The notes beneath the pieces were generated by a model. It was not told the origin of the DNA. It did no database searches and saw only the letters and a list, made by a program, of their open reading frames with translations. The position numbers and the translations under genes were made by a program. Of a DNA stretch of 64,000 bases, positions 54,704 to 64,000 are shown one piece after another. The first letter of the stretch is position 1, and each line of letters starts with the position of its first letter. The stretch covers positions 62,001 through 126,000 of the forward strand of contig NZ_MUYJ01000004.1 of the NCBI RefSeq assembly GCF_002155695.1, in the 5' to 3' direction. This stretch comes from Erythrobacter tepidarius. Lineage in GTDB: Bacteria; Pseudomonadota; Alphaproteobacteria; Sphingomonadales; Sphingomonadaceae.

Positions 54704-55435
54704 GTGCCACCACTGAGGTTCAAATCCGTATGGAAAGCCTCGGCCGCAGCTGCCGTGACGATCGCACTCGCAGGCTGCGCGTCCACTCCCGAGCCTGTTA
54801 TCGGCCCAAGCGTCGTCCAGCCGCGCGCCGATCTCGGGCAAAGCGGATACAGCCATCAGCGCCCGACCTCCTATGTCCTGCGACCTTCCGACCAGATCGC
54901 GGTGACGGTCTTCCGCGAGCCGGATTTTTCGCTCGAGAAAGTCAGGATCGGCGTGGAAGGCAATGTTTCTCTGCCTATGCTTGGCTCGATCCCGGCTGCG
55001 GGCATGACCGCCAAGCAGTTCGAGCAAGACGTTACCCGTCGTCTGGCTGCGGTCGGCCTGAAGTCACCCCTCGTCAGCGTCAATATCACCGAATATGCGT
55101 CACACCTCGTGACCGTCGAAGGTGCGGTTGAGACGCCCGGCGTCTATACTTTCCAGCCCGGCGCGCGCCTGTCCTCGGCGATCGCGCTGGCGAGAGGGCC
55201 GAAGCGGACAGCCAACACCAAGCAAGTCGCCGTGTTCCGCGAAAGTCCGGAGGGTATCATGGTGGCCAAGTTCGATTACGGGCAGATCCGCCAGGGAACG
55301 ATGCTCGATCCCGTGCTCCAGCCAGGCGATCGCGTTGTCATGGGCACTGACGGGCTGTCGGTGTTCTGGGAAGACCTGCTGAAGGCTTTGCCAGCGTTTG
55401 GCGTGTTTGCGGTCGCCGGCCTGAATAACAACTGA
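54704..55435 (+). CDS. Polysaccharide export lipoprotein (Wza/GumB-like)
   Basis: A 243-residue outer-membrane auxiliary lipoprotein. The leader ends in TIALAGCAST (lipobox, Cys about 24). The Poly_export domain YVLRPSDQIAVTVFREPDF runs from about 57 and one SLBB domain (VTVEGAVETPGVYTFQPG) follows. It is shorter than E. coli Wza (379) and matches GumB-like members with one SLBB and a short C-terminal helix. It forms the channel for the secreted polymer. The tyrosine kinase gene follows after 4 bp. GTG start with a strong ribosome site. Confidence 0.93.
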   Translation: MPPLRFKSVWKASAAAAVTIALAGCASTPEPVIGPSVVQPRADLGQSGYSHQRPTSYVLRPSDQIAVTVFREPDFSLEKVRIGVEGNVSLPMLGSIPAAGMTAKQFEQDVTRRLAAVGLKSPLVSVNITEYASHLVTVEGAVETPGVYTFQPGARLSSAIALARGPKRTANTKQVAVFRESPEGIMVAKFDYGQIRQGTMLDPVLQPGDRVVMGTDGLSVFWEDLLKALPAFGVFAVAGLNNN

Positions 55436-55439
55436 GACC

Positions 55440-57653
55440 ATGAACGAAAGACCGCTTGTCCAGGCCCCTGAGCCTGCCCGCCAAGGCGCATGGCTGGATG
55501 CTTACATGCCAGAAGGGCATCTGTATCCCGTCGCGCCGCGCCCCCAGCTGATCAATTTCGCGGCCATCCGCGGGGTGATTTTCCGCCAGCGCTGGCTCGT
55601 GGGATCGGTGATCGCCCTCGCCCTGCTGGTCGGTCTGGTCGTCACGCTGTTGGCAACGCCGATGTACCAGGCGCAGTCGAAGGTCGCGCTCAAGCCTTAC
55701 GGCCAGTACGTGGTCGAAGGCCAGGATGTCGAGCAGGGGGTGCCTTCCAGCCAGTTCTACGAATATATTTCAACCCAGATCGAGGTGATCAAGAGCCGCT
55801 CGCTGGCCGAAACGGTCGCGACAAATCTCAATCTCGCGACACGCAACGACTTTCTCGGCAAGGATGTCGACGAAGGCCGCGCTCCCGGCATGAGCGATGA
55901 GCAGTGGCTAGAAGCCAAGAAAAAAATGGCGGTCTCGCTTCTGGTGGGTTCCGTCGAAGCCACATCATCGCCCGAGAACTGGGTGATCACGATTGGCTTC
56001 AGGTCCGAAAGTCCCACGCTGGCGGCCGAGATTGCCAATGCCTATGCCGATGCCTTTGTCGCCAGCGGTTCGAGCAGCACGATCGAAAGCAATCGCTACG
56101 CGCTCGATTACCTTCTCAAACAGATCGAGGAGACCCGCAAACGGCTGGCCGAAGCCGAGCAGGTGACCAACACCTATGCGCGTAAAAGCGGGATCATCGT
56201 CCAGCAGTCTGGCGACGATGAAAATCCGACGGCCTCGACCCTCACGGCCAGCAATCTGGCCAGCATTAACGCCCGGGTCGCCAACGCGAAGGCTGCGCGG
56301 ATCGAAGCCGAACAACGCTGGCGCGCGATCCAGAACCTTCCTGCCGCCCAGCTCCCCGAGGTGCAGAGCAACCCCGTGCTCCAGGGCTTGGTGTCCGAGC
56401 GCACCGAGAAAAGCGCCCAGCTGGCTGACCTGCGCCAGCGCTACAACGACGACTTCCCTCAGATCCGCAATCTCGAAGCGCAGCTCAAGGTTCTCGATGA
56501 GCAGATCGAGCGCAGTAGTGCAGATATCAAGGCGACGGTTCGCAATCAGTATCTGGTGGCTCAGGCTCAGGAGCGTGCGCTTGCCTCCGAACTCGCCGCG
56601 CTGACCGGCGAGCGGCTGGTAGAGCAGGACCAGCAGGTGGAGCTGAGCGTGCTTGATCGCGAGGCCCAGGCCCTGCGTGACCAGCTGAAGACCCTGCTCG
56701 ACCGCTACAACCAGATCAACAGCGCGGCCAATGTCGAACCCGACACCATTACCAAGCTGGACCCCGCGGTCGTGCCGGGATCGCCCTATTCGCCCAATCT
56801 TCTCACCAATCTGGGCCTCGCACTGGTCTTTGGTGTGGCACTTGCCGGCCTGCTTGCAGTCCTGCGCGAGACCCTCGATGACCGGATCCGTTCGCTCGAC
56901 GAGGTCGAGGAAAAGATTGGTCTGCCCTTGCTCGGACACACGCCGCACGTGGAAAGTCGCGATATCGAAGCGCTTGGCACGAACCGGTTCAGCGCCCTGA
57001 TGGAGGCCTATTCCTCGATCCGCGCTGCGATCGATTTCAGCCTGTCCCGCAATCGCAACGTGATCCAGTTCACCAGCACTCAGGCCAGCGAGGGCAAGAG
57101 CACCACCGCTGTCATCCTGGCGGAACTCTTTGCGGGCCTGGGTCGCAAGACGCTTCTGATCGACGCGGACTTGCGCCGCCCCTCAGTCGCCGGATTGCTT
57201 GACATTGAACGTCCCAAGGTCGGCTTTGTCGAAGTGCTGCTCGGACATGTCGAGCTTGAGGCTGCGGTCGTCAAAGGGGTGCACGAGAATCTCGAGATTC
57301 TGCCGGTTGGCGAGATTCCGCCGAACCCGGTCGAAATTCTTGCATCGCAGGAATTGCATGATTTCATAGCCAAGTATCGTGAAGAATACTCGCTCATCAT
57401 CTTCGATTGCTGTCCGGTGCTCGGTCTCGCGGATGCGCCGATGCTCGCACGGCTCGTGGACGGGACCGTGTTCGTGCTCGAGGCGAACAAATTGCCGTTT
57501 GGTCAGGCGCGCTCCGCGATCAAGCGGCTTGTCGGAGCCGGTGCGAATGTTATCGGTGTGGTCCTCACCAAATATCGCGCGCTCGAGGCTGGTCAGGCCT
57601 ATGGCTACCAATACGAATACTACCAATACGGCCGCGACAAAAAGGCGCGCTGA
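55440..57653 (+). CDS. Polysaccharide co-polymerase and tyrosine autokinase (Wzc-like)
   Basis: A 737-residue fusion of a Wzz-type chain-length regulator and a BY-kinase. The N-terminal helix (about 54-74) and the second (about 455-475) border a coiled-coil periplasmic domain; the cytoplasmic kinase has Walker A ASEGKSTTA, Walker A' LLIDADLRRPS and a Walker B-like LIIFDCCPVLGLADA. The C terminus ends with a tyrosine-rich cluster (YGYQYEYYQYGRD) that is the autophosphorylation site in this family. It controls polymer length and export with the Wza-like protein. Confidence 0.94.
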   Translation: MNERPLVQAPEPARQGAWLDAYMPEGHLYPVAPRPQLINFAAIRGVIFRQRWLVGSVIALALLVGLVVTLLATPMYQAQSKVALKPYGQYVVEGQDVEQGVPSSQFYEYISTQIEVIKSRSLAETVATNLNLATRNDFLGKDVDEGRAPGMSDEQWLEAKKKMAVSLLVGSVEATSSPENWVITIGFRSESPTLAAEIANAYADAFVASGSSSTIESNRYALDYLLKQIEETRKRLAEAEQVTNTYARKSGIIVQQSGDDENPTASTLTASNLASINARVANAKAARIEAEQRWRAIQNLPAAQLPEVQSNPVLQGLVSERTEKSAQLADLRQRYNDDFPQIRNLEAQLKVLDEQIERSSADIKATVRNQYLVAQAQERALASELAALTGERLVEQDQQVELSVLDREAQALRDQLKTLLDRYNQINSAANVEPDTITKLDPAVVPGSPYSPNLLTNLGLALVFGVALAGLLAVLRETLDDRIRSLDEVEEKIGLPLLGHTPHVESRDIEALGTNRFSALMEAYSSIRAAIDFSLSRNRNVIQFTSTQASEGKSTTAVILAELFAGLGRKTLLIDADLRRPSVAGLLDIERPKVGFVEVLLGHVELEAAVVKGVHENLEILPVGEIPPNPVEILASQELHDFIAKYREEYSLIIFDCCPVLGLADAPMLARLVDGTVFVLEANKLPFGQARSAIKRLVGAGANVIGVVLTKYRALEAGQAYGYQYEYYQYGRDKKAR

Positions 57654-57775: not shown

Positions 57776-58651
57776 ATGACCAGCCATCCAGCCTTCACGG
57801 TCATCATCCCTGCCCACAACGAAGAGGCAGTGATTGGGCGCTGCCTCGCAACCGTCTTGCGCGACGCGCCCGAGGGCCACAAGATGGAAATCATCGTCGC
57901 CGCCAATGGCTGCGACGATCGCACCGTGGAACTGGCACGGGCCGCAGCCCCAGGCGCACGGGTGCTCGATCTGCCGAAGGGCTCCAAGACCGGCGCGATC
58001 AACGCCGCCAATGACATCGCGACCCACTTTCCGCGCATCTACCTCGATGCTGATGTCGAATGCGGGTTTGTGACGCTGGCTGCGCTCGCCAATGCGCTTT
58101 GCGAACCGGGCGTCATGACAGCTGCTCCGGCGATCAGGTTGGACTTTTCGCGGCTGAACTGGCTTGCCCGCGCCTATTACCGCGTCTGGCTGCGCCAACC
58201 CTATGCCACGGCAGGCAAGGGCGGGGCGGGTTGCTATGGCCTTTCGCGCGCCGCGCTTGAGGCGATCGGACGCTTCCCGCCGATCATCGCCGACGACCTG
58301 TGGATCCACACCCGCTTCCCCGACAGCCAGAAACGCTACATCACGAACGATGCGGAGGGCCGGCCGGTGTTCACGACTGTCCATCCACCGCGCACGGCGG
58401 GCGAGCAGGTGCGGATCGAGGCGCGGCGGCAGATCGGGACCGCCCAAGTCCGCCAGCTCCATCCCAGCCCCTACCTCGCCGAGCATGACGGCAAGCGCGG
58501 ACTCGGCGCCGCGCTGCGCAGCGGGGTCTCACCCCTTGATCTTGCCGTGTTTTCGGGTGTCAAGCTGTTCGCCCGCGCCGAGGCCAATTGGCGGCGGGCA
58601 CGCGGCAAGGCGCAGGAATGGACCCGCGACCTCAGCTCGCGGCAGGTCTGA
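57776..58651 (+). CDS. Glycosyltransferase family 2 protein
   Basis: A 291-residue GT-A glycosyltransferase. The N terminus has TVIIPAHNEEAVIGRCL, the metal-binding DXD equivalent is IYLDADVE (about 87-94), and the acceptor-side motif is RFPPIIADDLWIHTRFP. A C-terminal helical tail contains no clear membrane span. Donor unknown. It follows the kinase gene after 122 bp, and the next glycosyltransferase after 6 bp. Confidence 0.9.
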   Translation: MTSHPAFTVIIPAHNEEAVIGRCLATVLRDAPEGHKMEIIVAANGCDDRTVELARAAAPGARVLDLPKGSKTGAINAANDIATHFPRIYLDADVECGFVTLAALANALCEPGVMTAAPAIRLDFSRLNWLARAYYRVWLRQPYATAGKGGAGCYGLSRAALEAIGRFPPIIADDLWIHTRFPDSQKRYITNDAEGRPVFTTVHPPRTAGEQVRIEARRQIGTAQVRQLHPSPYLAEHDGKRGLGAALRSGVSPLDLAVFSGVKLFARAEANWRRARGKAQEWTRDLSSRQV

Positions 58652-58657
58652 TCGCCC

Positions 58658-59659
58658 ATGGACGAGGCCGCAATCACCGCTCGACCGGGAGCCGATGGCG
58701 GCAGCACCATTCCCGACGTCAGCATCATGATCGTCGCCTATAATTCGGCAGCGCTGATCGCGGACTGCATCGCCGCTATCCCGCAGGCCTGTCAGCGCTA
58801 CCGCCAGGAGACCCTGCTGATCGACAATGGCGACGGTTCCACCGAAGCGCTCGTCGCGGCTCGGTTCTCGTGGGTGCGGATCGTGCCCAGCCAAGGCAAT
58901 ATCGGCTTTGCCGGTGGCAACAACGTCATCGCCGGCCACGCCCGCGCACCGCGCCTGCTGCTGCTCAATCCCGACATGGTGGCCCATCCCGGCTCGATCG
59001 ACCGGCTGATCGACGGCGCGCTCGCCAACCCGGACGCGGGCGCATGGGGCGGCCTTACGCTCGACAGGGAGGGCCAGCCCGATACCGGCAATGCCATCGC
59101 CATCCCTTCGCTCATCGAACTAGCCAGCACTGCCATGGGCAAATCGCTGGTCGCCAGCCGCCCGATCCTCGGGATCGACACCGATGCCGAAGTCGATGTC
59201 CTCTGCGGCGGCTTCGTCATGTTCTCTCGCGAGGCGTGGGATGCCGCCCGCGGGCTCGACGAGCGCTTCTTCCTCTATTGCGAGGAGGTCGACCTGTTCT
59301 GCCGCCTCAAGCAGAAGGGCTACCGCTTCTGGCGCATCGCGGGCGCAAGGGCCACGCACATTGCTGGCCATGGCAACACGCTTTCGCCGATGCGGCTGCT
59401 CTATCGCGCCGCCGGGACGATGGAGTTCGTCCGCGCGCACTGGCGACCTGCACACCGTTGGCTGGCAGGATTTCTCGTGTGGCTTGCCGCCGCAGAACGG
59501 TGGCTTGCCGGTCGGCTGATCGGCAGATGGAACCTGCATCTGCGAGAGCTGGGCAATGGCTATCGTCTCGTGGCTATCCATCCGGCCTACTGGATCTTCG
59601 GATATCACAAGGGGCGGGGGCTCATGGCGAAGCTGGCGCGATCCCCTCTCAAGCCATGA
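58658..59659 (+). CDS. Glycosyltransferase family 2 protein, rhamnosyltransferase-like
   Basis: A 333-residue GT-A enzyme with VSIMIVAYNSAALI, GNIGFAGGNN, LLLLNPDM (metal DxD equivalent) and the FFLYCEEVDLFCRLKQKGYR motif in the C-terminal half, the standard pattern of GT2 rhamnosyltransferase-like enzymes. The C-terminal region (about 265-330) is Trp/Arg rich and amphipathic. It overlaps the next gene as ATGA. Confidence 0.9.
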   Translation: MDEAAITARPGADGGSTIPDVSIMIVAYNSAALIADCIAAIPQACQRYRQETLLIDNGDGSTEALVAARFSWVRIVPSQGNIGFAGGNNVIAGHARAPRLLLLNPDMVAHPGSIDRLIDGALANPDAGAWGGLTLDREGQPDTGNAIAIPSLIELASTAMGKSLVASRPILGIDTDAEVDVLCGGFVMFSREAWDAARGLDERFFLYCEEVDLFCRLKQKGYRFWRIAGARATHIAGHGNTLSPMRLLYRAAGTMEFVRAHWRPAHRWLAGFLVWLAAAERWLAGRLIGRWNLHLRELGNGYRLVAIHPAYWIFGYHKGRGLMAKLARSPLKP

Positions 59660-60516
59660 GATCGAGACACGTGATGCGTCCAACACCGCCGATCCGATCT
59701 GGAAAGCCCGACTTGCAACATTTCGTCCTCACCCGTTTCAATATCGCCAGTCCGGGCCGTGAAGCCCCGATCCGCAATTCTCCCGGCTGGCTGTCAGGCC
59801 GGTTCGAACTGTTCATGACCTATTGCCTTCCCAGCATGGCGGCACAGGAAAGCCATGCGTTTCATTGGCTGATCTATTTTGATGAGCAGACCCCGGAGCA
59901 GTTTCGCGAACAGATCATCGCCGCACAGTCACAGGTTGCGTTCGAGCCGATTTTCGTCGGCCCGTTTCGAGCCTCATTGGCCGCAGATGATGTGGCCAAA
60001 CGCCTCTCTCCCGGAACGCAGCGGGTCATAACAACGCGTCTCGACAATGACGATGCGGTCTCGCGCGACTTTCTGATGCGGATCCGCGCCGAGTGTGAGG
60101 GCTTGCCGGATGGGACAATCGTGAACTTCCGCCAAGGCGTCGCGCTGCGTGCTGGCCGCCTTTATACGGCGGTTGACGACAGCAATCCCTTTGCGTCGCT
60201 CGTCGAAGCCGCCGACGGCGCGAAGACGATCTGGGCCGCCCCACACACGGAACTCGCCGCGCGCTTTCCGACCAGACAAGTCGATACCGCACCTTGCTGG
60301 CTCCAGGTCGTGCACGGTGAAAACGTCGCAAACCGAATCAAGGGCAAGCGGCTTGGCGACAGGGACGTTCTCGACCGCTTTGGTCTGCGCCCGGGCATAG
60401 GGATCGAGGAAACCAGTGCCGCTGATCTGCTGCTCGATCGGCTGATTTTCCATCCCTTGCGCAGCCTGAGAGAGAAGATCATCGCGCTGGCAAAGGCGAT
60501 CCTGCGGCGACATTGA
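59656..60516 (+). CDS. Putative rhamnosyltransferase (Rhamno_transf-like)
   Basis: A 286-residue protein. The segment FVLTRFNIASPG, the hydrophobic-aromatic HAFHWLIYFDEQTPE and the metal-type TTRLDNDDAVSRDFL (about 115-129, D-x-D-D) match the Rhamno_transf family of putative rhamnosyltransferases, as I recall it. ATG 59656 overlaps the upstream stop by 4 bp; an ATG at 59674 would be shorter. Last plus-strand gene of the locus. Rhamnose as donor is inferred from the family name only. Confidence 0.8.
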   Translation: MRSRHVMRPTPPIRSGKPDLQHFVLTRFNIASPGREAPIRNSPGWLSGRFELFMTYCLPSMAAQESHAFHWLIYFDEQTPEQFREQIIAAQSQVAFEPIFVGPFRASLAADDVAKRLSPGTQRVITTRLDNDDAVSRDFLMRIRAECEGLPDGTIVNFRQGVALRAGRLYTAVDDSNPFASLVEAADGAKTIWAAPHTELAARFPTRQVDTAPCWLQVVHGENVANRIKGKRLGDRDVLDRFGLRPGIGIEETSAADLLLDRLIFHPLRSLREKIIALAKAILRRH

Positions 60517-61914: not shown

Positions 61915-62412
61915 GCAACAACGCTAGCGGATTTCAGGTCTGCGTCAAAGCCGGTTTCCGAACCGAGGCCTGCGACCCAACCCGCAACGACCCGCTCGCT
62001 CACAATTACCGGCGATGATGACCCCACGAAGCGGCGAAAAATCTCCCATTTTTGCAGTATCTTAAAATCTCAACGAGGAGCAAATTCACCCGCGCAGCGA
62101 ATGGCGAGCGAAGCATTCGCAAGGGATCGCTCGATGCGCGTGAAACTATGTTTGCGGCGGCCATGAAAGTCTGACACGATCAGGAAGTCCATCATCAACC
62201 TGTTCGGACAATGGACGCATGATGGACGCATCACCGTCACAAGCAATGGCTCGGCCATTTTCGGTGAGAGCCGTCATCCCAAGAGGTAGGATCCTTGCGA
62301 CACAAAGGCCTGCGCCGCAGGCGCAATGGAGCGACGAAGAAAAAGCGCTTTCCTACATATAACCATAATGATTTAAGGACGTCATTAATGATAACCAGAA
62401 AGGTTAAAACTG
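61915..62412. other. Intergenic region between the polysaccharide locus and the spike module
   Basis: About 500 bases without a convincing gene, AT-richer than the flanks. It holds an 11-bp-spaced direct repeat of ATGGACGCAT (62211-62220 and 62222-62231), a small G+C hairpin near 62307-62323, and the likely promoter of the spike operon at 62341-62412. The boundary between two functionally different modules lies here. Confidence 0.5.
62359..62397 (+). promoter_or_regulatory. Dyad and repeats in the spike-operon promoter
   Basis: A near-perfect 16-bp palindrome TTAA-G-GAC-GTC-A-TTAA (62373-62388, one mismatched pair) is flanked by a direct repeat ATAACCA (62359-62365 and 62391-62397) whose copies are 32 bp, about three helical turns, apart. 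AAAGG precedes the ATG at 62413 by about 10 bases. The site does not fit the CtrA consensus (TTAA-N7-TTAA) because the spacer is 8. It is a candidate operator of unknown regulator. Confidence 0.45.
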
Positions 62413-62679
62413 ATGGCGGACCATTTCAGTACGGCAATTGACAGCCTGATTGCTCCCGCGCGCCTCGCCTTCGCGATCGTGCCGGCAGATACAAGCGATC
62501 TCCCCCAATATACGAAGGCCATCTATGTCGGCACGGGCGGCGACATCGCGCTGAGAGCCGTCGGATCGGACGAAGACGTGGTGCTGCGCAATGTGGCGTC
62601 CGGCAGCGTGCTTGCCATCCGGGTCGCGGCGCTGCGGCAGACTGGAACCACCGCCAGCGACATCGTGGGCCTTGCCTGA
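62413..62679 (+). CDS. Head-spike base protein, GTA/phage RCAP_rcc01079-like
   Basis: An 88-residue protein that resembles, over its whole length as I recall the family, the small spike-base protein of gene transfer agents and phages (RCAP_rcc01079 type): a conserved AFAIVPADTSDLPQ near 20-33, KAIYVGTGGDIALR near 35-48, and the C-terminal LRQTGTTASDIVGL. In Rhodobacter capsulatus this protein is the base of the capsid head spike. It is coupled to the next gene by TGATG. No other capsid, tail or terminase gene is in the window. Confidence 0.7.
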   Translation: MADHFSTAIDSLIAPARLAFAIVPADTSDLPQYTKAIYVGTGGDIALRAVGSDEDVVLRNVASGSVLAIRVAALRQTGTTASDIVGLA

Positions 62680-64000
62680 TGACATGGCATGGCATCGGCC
62701 TGATCTCGGGAAGCTCGGCCCCCCCGGTAGTGATGGACGGTCTTTTCGTGGCCATCCCAACCCTCACCCCTTCCCCCCAATGGAACGGCACGGCTGGTTC
62801 CGGCTTTGGGGGCAGCAATCCGGCGGCGCCAGTCGATCCGGTGCGCACCCTTGCCAAGCCTGCGCTGCGGTTGCTCACCCCGCCCAATCAGTGGTTCACC
62901 GATACGCTCGACGTGGGCGTCATCGCGGCGGCGGATGACAATGGCAGTCTCGAAAACTGTCTTGGGGTGCGCGAGGTTCGGTTCTACTACGAGGGCAACG
63001 TCGTTTCGGTCAGCGAACCGCGCTGGAACACCATCACCACCGAGCGCGGGGCGCGCAGCTATTATGGCTGGTGGGTGCGGCTCAAGAAACCCGCCAGCAC
63101 CGCAGGCACGGCGCGGCTCTACATCGAGGCAACCGCCAACGACAGCACCTTCCAGAAGCGGGTGATCGGCCCCTTCCTCTACTCGCCGCAGAACGTGCTG
63201 CACGACGTGGAAATCACCATCGACCCTGACCTCGCGGAAATTGCTGGCGAGCGCTATCAGTCGATCCCCAACGCCATTCCCTTCGTGGTTAACGGCAATT
63301 ACCAGAACCCGCGCTTCACCATCGCCAAGGCGGGGCGCTACACCACGGGCTTTGGCTCGACTTCGGCAGTGCCGACGGATCGCTGGACGATCACCGGGCG
63401 CTTCACGGTTGAGGCAAGCGTTCCGGGCGTCATCCTCGGCAACACCAGCTACACCACCGATGCCAATACGCTGATGAATGCGCAGCGCACCTTCTGGCGC
63501 TTCAAGGGCACGAATATCACTTTCGACGCGCAATATGGCACGTCGATGAACACCAATACCAGCACCGGCTATGGCCCCGGCCTGCCCGGCAATCACTGGG
63601 CAGACGGGATCAACATCACGAACCTTTCCTCGCTCGGCAAAAAGGAGCTTATCCGGGGCGGGCAGTGGAACGGCGGCGGTATGCCGAGCAACACCTGGTA
63701 TACCGAATGCCAGATTACCAAGCTCAACCAGCCGGTGGTCAACGCTTCGCTCATACGCGGCTGCTATGTCGGGGATAGCCAAAGCGACATTGCCAGCAAC
63801 GCCGTGTGCATCGTTTCCAGCGAGTTCGAGGGTTCGGATCAGAACGACCTCAACACGGATCGACCCGCCTTTACGATGGTTTACTCCGGCCCGGAAAGCG
63901 TGGCGACCGCCGCGCGTTCGGGCGGCAACTATTCGTCGGGCACGGGCGGCGGGGTTTGGACGGTGACGATTGGCTCGACCACCTATACCTTCGATCACGG
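62679..64000 (+). CDS. Head-spike/fibre protein, probably beta-helical (partial)
   Basis: An open frame from ATG 62679 to the right edge (at least 440 codons, no stop), so it continues beyond the window. The product is rich in Gly, Asn, Ser and Thr with repeated beta-strand-like segments (RTFWRFKGTNITFDAQYG, NHWADGINITNLSS, GGQWNGGG, GGGVWTVTIGSTTYTF) and an aromatic N-terminal part, the composition of parallel beta-helix or fibre proteins. Its overlap with the spike-base gene is the arrangement of rcc01079-rcc01080, so it is probably the spike that binds or degrades surface polysaccharide. No catalytic motif was recognised. Confidence 0.65.
   Translation, partial: MTWHGIGLISGSSAPPVVMDGLFVAIPTLTPSPQWNGTAGSGFGGSNPAAPVDPVRTLAKPALRLLTPPNQWFTDTLDVGVIAAADDNGSLENCLGVREVRFYYEGNVVSVSEPRWNTITTERGARSYYGWWVRLKKPASTAGTARLYIEATANDSTFQKRVIGPFLYSPQNVLHDVEITIDPDLAEIAGERYQSIPNAIPFVVNGNYQNPRFTIAKAGRYTTGFGSTSAVPTDRWTITGRFTVEASVPGVILGNTSYTTDANTLMNAQRTFWRFKGTNITFDAQYGTSMNTNTSTGYGPGLPGNHWADGINITNLSSLGKKELIRGGQWNGGGMPSNTWYTECQITKLNQPVVNASLIRGCYVGDSQSDIASNAVCIVSSEFEGSDQNDLNTDRPAFTMVYSGPESVATAARSGGNYSSGTGGGVWTVTIGSTTYTFDH

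What the first reader, a model, noticed from the sequence alone, without database searches (positions are those of the whole stretch)
62413..64000. GTA-type head-spike pair placed directly beside a surface-polysaccharide locus
The sequence shows a small protein with the GTGGD and C-terminal TGTTASDIVGL pattern of the rcc01079 spike-base family, coupled by TGATG to a long Gly/Asn/Ser-rich protein. In R. capsulatus the corresponding head spike, encoded away from the main GTA cluster, helps particles bind the recipient capsule. Here the pair is next to genes for an acidic polysaccharide. A receptor-synthesis locus and the spike that recognises it may be linked, so spike and glycan could be exchanged or co-evolve as a unit.
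Basis: partly seen in the sequence, partly recalled or inferred. Interest (0 to 1): 0.75.

Follow-up and report, generated by a model that had tools for sequence, protein, structure and literature searches.

The report
GTA head spike inside capsule locus
A bacterium keeps the gene pair for the capsule-grabbing head spike of its gene-transfer particle inside the gene cluster that makes its own surface polysaccharide, with the same DNA control site as the particle's capsid genes; relatives do the same, and some marine bacteria carry spike and polysaccharide genes together on plasmids.

Summary
Confirmed, and larger than first stated. The 88-aa ORF (62413-62679) is a head-spike base of the RcGTA Rcc01079 family (PDB profile E 1.1e-17), translationally coupled to a 1,053-aa fibre ending at ~65840. 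No prophage genes were seen beside it: the pair lies between a Wzy-like and a Wzx gene in the polysaccharide locus. The genome's GTA capsid cluster is on another contig and has no spike. The palindrome TAACC-N5-GGTTA occurs exactly twice in the 3.2-Mb assembly: just before the spike base and in the GTA cluster promoter.

The base occurs in 45 of 298 same-family genomes. Of 42 strong hits, 12 sit between capsid and connector genes inside a GTA cluster. Of the other 30, 23 lie among polysaccharide genes (1 of 20 control windows, p=4e-7). The base also lies near polysaccharide genes on 15 of 21 annotated alphaproteobacterial plasmids (no control taken).

Spike-capsule adjacency is already published for R. 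capsulatus. New here: two alternative homes, the shared operator, a second (LexA-like) control class, plasmid carriage, and glycan-locus spikes in genomes without a detected capsid. Exchange as a unit is only partly supported; binding of this fibre to this capsule is inferred.

The parts
62348..62357 (+). promoter-like element CTTTCCTACA
   Evidence: T[TG]TCCTA upstream of 68 of 79 spike bases at glycan or possible-glycan loci, 3 of 1041 control upstream regions; 16 copies in this genome against 3 of the reversed pattern
62392..62406 (.). palindromic operator TAACC-AGAAA-GGTTA, 6 nt before the spike-base ATG
   Evidence: one of only two TAACC-N5-GGTTA sites in the assembly; the other is in the GTA capsid-cluster promoter
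62413..62679 (+). head-spike base protein, 88 aa (Rcc01079 family)
62679..64000 (+). head-spike fibre, first 440 of 1053 aa (ends about window position 65840); N-terminal Gly/hydrophobic peptide MTWHGIGLI; body homologous to a modelled right-handed beta-helix
60556..61914 (-). Wzy-like polysaccharide polymerase / O-antigen-ligase-type protein (Wzy_C 30.4 bits, cut-off 31.7)
59671..60516 (+). putative rhamnosyl transferase (PF11316); start chosen by me within a longer open frame
57776..59659 (+). two GT2 glycosyltransferases
54704..57653 (+). Wza-like and Wzc-like export genes (names recalled from sequence, not Pfam-scanned here); homologues recur near spikes in relatives

Best explanation
The pair encodes the head spike of the genome's own RcGTA-type gene transfer agent, housed not in the capsid cluster but in the locus that makes the cell's surface polysaccharide. 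SHOWN by sequence: base homologous to Rcc01079; coupled fibre with a Gly/hydrophobic N-terminal peptide and, by homology to a modelled relative, a beta-helix body like tailspikes and polysaccharide lyases; a GTA cluster elsewhere in the genome whose capsid gene is followed directly by the connector gene, with no spike between; an operator shared by spike and GTA promoter and found nowhere else in the assembly. INFERRED: when the GTA is switched on, the same regulator switches on the spike. Base pentamers sit on capsid vertices, each holding one fibre by its N-terminal peptide as in RcGTA. The fibre binds, perhaps also trims, the capsule made by the neighbouring genes, so particles stick to cells of the same glycan type. 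Linkage means replacing the glycan locus by recombination also replaces the matching spike.
For: Homology to the solved RcGTA spike base. GTA cluster at G000:C31 with terminase, HK97 portal, HK97 capsid, connector, Rcc01695-family distal tail, GTA hub and megatron-like genes. In 12 of 42 strong family hits the base lies directly downstream of the GTA capsid gene, with the connector gene after it in 12 of 12, which ties the family to GTAs. Operator unique to the two loci. A matrix built from 20 GTA promoters scores spike promoters above controls: 24 of 79 over the 99% control threshold, p=2.5e-9. The remaining 30 spikes favour glycan loci, 23 of 30 against 1 of 20. Fibre relative modelled at pLDDT 84.5; VIA Z 16.5 AlgE6 epimerase, 16.3 RbmB lyase, 15.8 CBA120 tailspike 3. 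GTA-type capsid gene (E<=1e-100) in 35 of 45 spike genomes against 147 of 253 others, p=0.013.
Against: Six of the 30 spikes outside GTA clusters lie in genomes with no GTA-type capsid gene (E<=1e-15) and no PF05065 capsid (G041 of the same genus, G079, G102, G244, G258, G287). Two more lack a proper GTA-type capsid: G076 has only a partial match, and G046 has a capsid of another type on the spike's own contig, so that spike may belong to a prophage. So a spike can persist without its own GTA. 147 of 253 genomes without a detected spike carry the GTA capsid gene, so it is not needed everywhere. In other lineages the spike promoter carries a LexA-like box instead of the GTA-type operator. The base family also occurs in free phages (80 records). 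The operator pattern was chosen after seeing both promoters. The window's own N-terminal peptide fails the strict star pattern.
Confidence: 0.72

Rival explanations
1. The pair is a domesticated tailspike-like enzyme that now belongs to the polysaccharide system (a capsule-trimming or length-setting enzyme, as Pantoea WceF is described), with the base protein kept as a scaffold and no role in GTA particles.
For: Spikes outside GTA clusters persist in six genomes without a detected capsid. The fibre body resembles polysaccharide lyases, epimerases and WceF (6tgf Z 12.6). 32 of 79 relatives have a LexA-like box.
Against: The virion base protein is kept and usually coupled to a fibre. The operator is shared only with the GTA capsid promoter. 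The same family sits inside GTA clusters in 12 of 42. The N-terminal anchor pattern of the RcGTA type is found in 34 of 64 glycan-locus fibres against 25 of 1690 other genes.
Confidence: 0.14
2. The pair is a receptor-binding module of a prophage, or a phage remnant, that happens to lie in the glycan locus.
For: The base family occurs in 80 phage records and on a phage-like plasmid. The genome has two other phage-like head clusters, C1 and C9.
Against: Flanking genes that gave a Pfam match are polysaccharide-type genes or a methyltransferase. The fibre has no match among 50,697 phage records. The exact operator is absent from the other phage-like clusters. The promoter element is conserved in 68 of 79 relatives.
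Confidence: 0.08
3. Glycan loci are insertion hot spots, and the spike pair sits there by chance without functional linkage.
For: Glycan loci are variable and gain genes often (general knowledge). The polymerase Wzy does not covary significantly with the fibre. Some spikes sit elsewhere, e.g. in a chromosomal neighbourhood where PlsX- and FabH-type genes were identified.
Against: Strong enrichment; conserved promoter; recurrence in other families (L093 and L094 near Wzc) and on 15 of 21 annotated plasmids; the R. capsulatus precedent with shown binding.
Confidence: 0.06

Closest known systems
RcGTA head spike GhsA/GhsB (Rcc01079/Rcc01080) of Rhodobacter capsulatus
   Same: Homologous base; fibre with an N-terminal Gly/hydrophobic peptide; genes away from the capsid cluster and beside capsule genes (PMC10218006 passages); capsule binding shown there (PMC10218006 discussion; PMC7296036 passages)
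   Different: Different order of Alphaproteobacteria; fibre 1053 aa with a beta-helix body against 325 aa; palindromic operator shared with the GTA promoter, whereas CtrA and GafA sites are reported there (PMC9638019 passages)
GTA clusters of related Sphingomonadaceae with the spike in place (12 genomes, e.g. L062, L078, L097)
   Same: Same base family, mostly with a coupled fibre
   Different: Spike lies between capsid gene and connector gene (12 of 12); none of the 11 tested has labelled glycan genes within 20 kb
Tailed-phage 'tail fiber' family phrog_12296 (RcapNL, Flavobacterium phages, P8625)
   Same: Homologous base
   Different: Part of a phage genome; the window's fibre has no phage match
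Pantoea stewartii WceF (6tgf)
   Same: Tailspike-like parallel beta-helix glycan-modifying enzyme (entry title)
   Different: Weaker fold match (Z 12.6); whether it has a base protein or GTA link was not looked at here

Membership tests
RcGTA-type head spike | base protein homologous to Rcc01079 | tested here: met
   E 4.9e-7 single, 1.1e-17 profile
RcGTA-type head spike | fibre gene coupled to the base gene | tested here: met
   TGATG overlap
RcGTA-type head spike | fibre N-terminus with alternating Gly/hydrophobic residues that fits the base pentamer (IALGLGLGL in RcGTA) | tested here: inconclusive
   Window MTWHGIGLI is a shortened version and fails the strict pattern; 34 of 64 glycan-locus relatives pass it, 25 of 1690 control genes do
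RcGTA-type head spike | genome holds an RcGTA-type capsid cluster | tested here: met
   G000:C31, capsid TIGR01554, TIGR02217, TIGR02218; megatron model matched at 326.6 bits, below its cut-off of 800
RcGTA-type head spike | co-regulated with the GTA capsid genes | tested here: inconclusive
   Shared unique operator; no expression data
RcGTA-type head spike | present on particles and binds capsule | not testable with these tools
   needs particles and binding assays
ordinary prophage module | integrase, capsid or tail genes flanking the pair | tested here: not met
   Every flanking gene that gave a Pfam match is a polysaccharide-type gene or a methyltransferase; two downstream ORFs gave no match

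The most novel reading that the evidence does not exclude
The spike is a portable, glycan-matched receptor-binding cartridge that belongs to the capsule locus rather than to one particle. It travels with the polysaccharide genes, also on plasmids, and is switched either by the GTA operator or by SOS. Any compatible capsid made in the cell, GTA or prophage, can be fitted with it, so the cell's own capsule genes decide which kin its particles visit; this would also explain spikes kept in genomes without a detected capsid.
Probability: 0.25. Interest if true: 0.88.

Novelty: new variant of a known kind. Interest (0 to 1): 0.7.

Why it matters
How gene transfer agents choose recipients, and what keeps them aimed at kin, is open. 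If the spike that recognises the capsule is genetically tied to the capsule's own synthesis genes and shares the capsid genes' private switch, target choice can change whenever capsules change, without touching the particle. The spread over Sphingomonadaceae and alphaproteobacterial plasmids makes this testable by spike swaps between strains. It also gives a simple genomic way, base gene plus operator, to find scattered GTA parts in a large family of environmental bacteria.

Tried and rejected
CtrA-type TTAA-N7-TTAA sites within 160 nt upstream of spikes: 0 of 128 loci. CTTTCCTACA as a GTA-specific element: rejected. It is absent from L011, which holds the GTA promoter, and occurs 16 times genome-wide against 3 for the reversed control, with no common function seen in crude gene calls. 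LexA-like box at GTA promoters: 0 of 21 upstream regions of 240 nt, but three of these (L206, L210, L211) did not reach the TTGACA promoter. Whole spike fibre in phages: no match. Pfam for the window fibre: none. A model of the short L113 fibre (C-terminal module) was too poor to use (pLDDT 31.6). Hynes et al. 2016 (PMC5026251) is not held, so what it says about spike distribution is unknown to me.

Limits of the counts. Glycan labels were built from the spike neighbourhoods themselves, with the tested locus left out. No control was taken for the plasmid neighbourhoods. The 88-column tree resolves little. Spikes are related by descent, so Fisher values are not phylogenetically corrected. The 80 named loci came from a motif search biased to close relatives of the window protein. 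Three weak family hits (G017, G075, G156) were left out of the context counts, and four duplicate loci were dropped. The second base match in G244 (L096) was fetched but is not in the 42. Where my crude gene caller found no fibre start, frames were recovered stop to stop; ten of 128 loci had none.

Full report
What is there. The 88-aa ORF at 62413-62679 and the coupled ORF at 62679 are real. The second ORF continues past the window to about 65840 and encodes 1,053 aa. The small protein matches RcGTA head spike base Rcc01079 in the PDB at E 4.9e-7, and at 1.1e-17 with a profile of 41 relatives. It also matches the phage family phrog_12296. A 'Spike Base Protein' (8cjz) is the next PDB match, E 4.5e-5 with the profile.

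Surroundings. The pair lies inside a polysaccharide locus. Upstream are two GT2 glycosyltransferases, a putative rhamnosyltransferase and a Wzy_C-like membrane protein. Downstream are a Wzx-type flippase, a methyltransferase and a WsaF glycosyltransferase; two further ORFs gave no Pfam match. Farther downstream genes resemble an rml operon (names recalled). No phage gene was seen beyond the pair.

The genome's GTA. The own genome (3.2 Mb, 32 contigs) has an RcGTA-type cluster on contig C31. It holds an HK97 portal, HK97 capsid, head-tail connector, an Rcc01695-family distal tail protein, a GTA hub protein and a megatron-like protein; the last is below its curated cut-off. The connector gene follows the capsid gene directly, with no spike between. 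Two other phage-like head clusters lie on C1 and C9. The window base has one strong match in the genome, itself; three others are at E 0.19-0.56.

Shared switch. The palindrome TAACC-N5-GGTTA occurs exactly twice in the assembly: at window 62392-62406, 6 nt before the spike ATG, and at C31:24964-24978, before the first GTA gene. About one site is expected from base composition, and the reversed control gives none. I chose the pattern after seeing both promoters, so this is not a blind test. As a fairer test, a matrix built from the GTA promoters of 20 genomes was run on spike promoters. Their median best score was 3.6 against 0.9 for 1,040 other upstream regions of the same loci (p=2.5e-9), and 24 of 79 exceeded the 99% control threshold. 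A degenerate core ([ATC]A[AC]C-N5-GG) followed by TTGACA was found in 20 of 21 GTA promoter regions, and the exact AACC-N5-GGTT in 4 of 21.

A second control class. The 79 promoters are those of glycan (65) and possible-glycan (14) loci. T[TG]TCCTA lies upstream of 68 of 79 and 3 of 1,041 controls. GTTC-N7-GTTC (either strand) lies upstream of 32 of 79 and 12 of 1,041 controls. AACC-N5-GGTT lies upstream of 14 of 79 and 5 of 1,041 controls. No promoter has both of the last two (mutual exclusion p=5e-4, uncorrected for relatedness). I recall GTTC-N7-GTTC as the alphaproteobacterial LexA box; PMC6473078 (passages) speaks of GTTC and GAAC consensus groups for LexA sites. None of 21 GTA upstream regions carries it, three of which did not reach the promoter.

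Two homes. Of 298 genomes of the same family, 45 have the base. In 12 of the 42 strong hits it lies directly after the GTA capsid gene, with the connector gene 0.9-2.5 kb farther on in 12 of 12. Of the other 30, 23 have at least two labelled polysaccharide genes within 20 kb, against 1 of 20 windows taken elsewhere in genomes of the same set; 0 of the 11 GTA-cluster loci tested have any. A wider set of 128 distinct loci gives 65 glycan, 14 possible glycan, 13 GTA-cluster and 36 other contexts. A class-level draw of 385 genomes has 10 positives, 6 of them from other families. Of the 7 loci in those six, L092 lies in a GTA cluster, L093 and L094 near a Wzc gene, and the other four in neither context. 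On the 88-column tree the RcGTA base groups with L093 (99/98). Context needs 8 changes against 20 for shuffled labels, and the GTA-cluster label alone needs 4. The spike has therefore probably moved between the two homes more than once. The tree is short and cannot say in which direction.

Plasmids. The base is on 23 plasmid records, mostly Rhodobacterales. I fetched 22 regions. One of these (pBEN) has no annotation in the region, and the unannotated Pseudorhodobacter record was not fetched. Of the 21 annotated regions, 15 have at least two polysaccharide genes within 8-12 kb: rhamnose-sugar genes only; flippase plus YjbH. Six do not: three Thioclava plasmids with the same gene order, a Tritonibacter phage-like plasmid, one Sulfitobacter and one Rhizobium. 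No control neighbourhoods were taken for plasmids.

The fibre. Relatives share the first ~700 residues of the window fibre; the C-terminal part is modular. A 706-aa relative (L103, 41% identical over 739 aligned positions) was modelled at pLDDT 84.5, pTM 0.88: a disordered N-terminal 23 residues, a beta domain, then a right-handed beta-helix. VIA-align places the helix part with AlgE6 epimerase (Z 16.5, rmsd 3.2, 301 aligned), RbmB polysaccharide lyase (Z 16.3), CBA120 tailspike 3 (Z 15.8), and HK620 and P22 tailspikes (13.6 and 12.4). Foldseek alone was weak (best E 4e-4; viral library best 1e-4). Fold does not prove an enzyme. Other fibres of the family carry SASA or GDSL-type esterase domains. 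The strict anchor pattern holds in 34 of 64 glycan-locus fibres, 1 of 12 possible-glycan, 3 of 13 GTA-cluster and 9 of 29 other fibres, and in 25 of 1,690 control genes; the window's own peptide fails it.

Against the simple reading. Six spikes outside GTA clusters lie in genomes without a GTA-type capsid gene and without any PF05065 capsid. One of those genomes (G102) keeps a TIGR02217 gene and another (G244) a weak match. G076 has only a partial capsid match, and G046 has a capsid of another type on the spike's contig. GTA capsid presence is only moderately enriched with the spike: 35 of 45 against 147 of 253, counting matches at E<=1e-100 read from the listing, p=0.013. The spike may outlive its GTA or serve something else.

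Exchange as a unit. Over 10-15 genomes per gene, fibre similarity tracks Wza (partial r 0.62, p 4e-4), Wzc (0.47, 4e-4) and GT1 (0.43, 0.001) after removing GTA-portal similarity, but not Wzy (0.20, 0.07), GT2b (0.17, 0.11) or RmlB (-0.09, 0.50). This fits co-inheritance of locus pieces but not yet a glycan-structure match.

Literature. PMC10218006 (passages and discussion section) gives the R. capsulatus precedent: adjacency and co-regulation of capsule and spike genes, and weaker binding when the capsule genes are absent. PMC7296036 (passages) gives the spike architecture. PMC9638019 (passages) gives CtrA/GafA control of the R. capsulatus spike. PMC11150451 (passages) describes GafY/GafZ control in Caulobacter and gave no matching motif in the passages seen. 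PMC13420450 (passages) describes a separate, detachable tailspike conserved in Rhodobacterales GTAs. PMC8601537 (passages) reports spike relatives in R. capsulatus phages. PMC10883770 (term search of the main text) has no occurrence of 'head spike', rcc01079, rcc01080 or ghsA. Searches (capped listings) showed no paper whose title or abstract start describes this arrangement in Sphingomonadales or on plasmids; only part of the literature is held.

Verdict. A GTA head spike of known kind in a home known from one model organism, now shown to be a recurrent, separately controlled and plasmid-borne arrangement. The shared operator is the strongest new link; the orphan spikes are the strongest doubt.

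Noticed in passing
window 62348-62357; G000 genome-wide: CTTTCCTACA occurs 16 times in the genome against 3 for the reversed pattern; it looks like a promoter element of unknown class, and several copies lie in intergenic regions with no obvious downstream gene.
   Followed up: partly
L012 (G000:C9) and L013 (G000:C1): Two further phage-like head clusters in the genome, besides the GTA cluster.
   Followed up: partly
L054, L055, L106, L110, L120: In Sphingobium-like genomes the spike base sits in a chromosomal place that is neither a GTA cluster nor a glycan locus; a FabH-type gene (L120) and a PlsX-type gene (L106) were identified in two of these neighbourhoods.
   Followed up: partly
L250, L251, L252, L254, L257, L258 (plasmids): On Roseivivax and Sulfitobacter plasmids the spike base lies directly after a ParB-type plasmid partition gene.
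   Followed up: no
L246 (Tritonibacter mobilis p5): A phage-like plasmid with tail and lysozyme genes carries the spike base.
   Followed up: no
phage records: 72 of 80 phage records with the base are Flavobacterium phages.
   Followed up: no
L064, L056, L074 promoters: Some spikes in genomes without a detected capsid carry a LexA-like box, so possibly SOS-controlled spikes exist without a GTA.
   Followed up: partly
L075 (G046:C18): A spike base about 17 kb downstream of a PF05065 capsid of non-GTA type on the same contig; probably a prophage spike.
   Followed up: no
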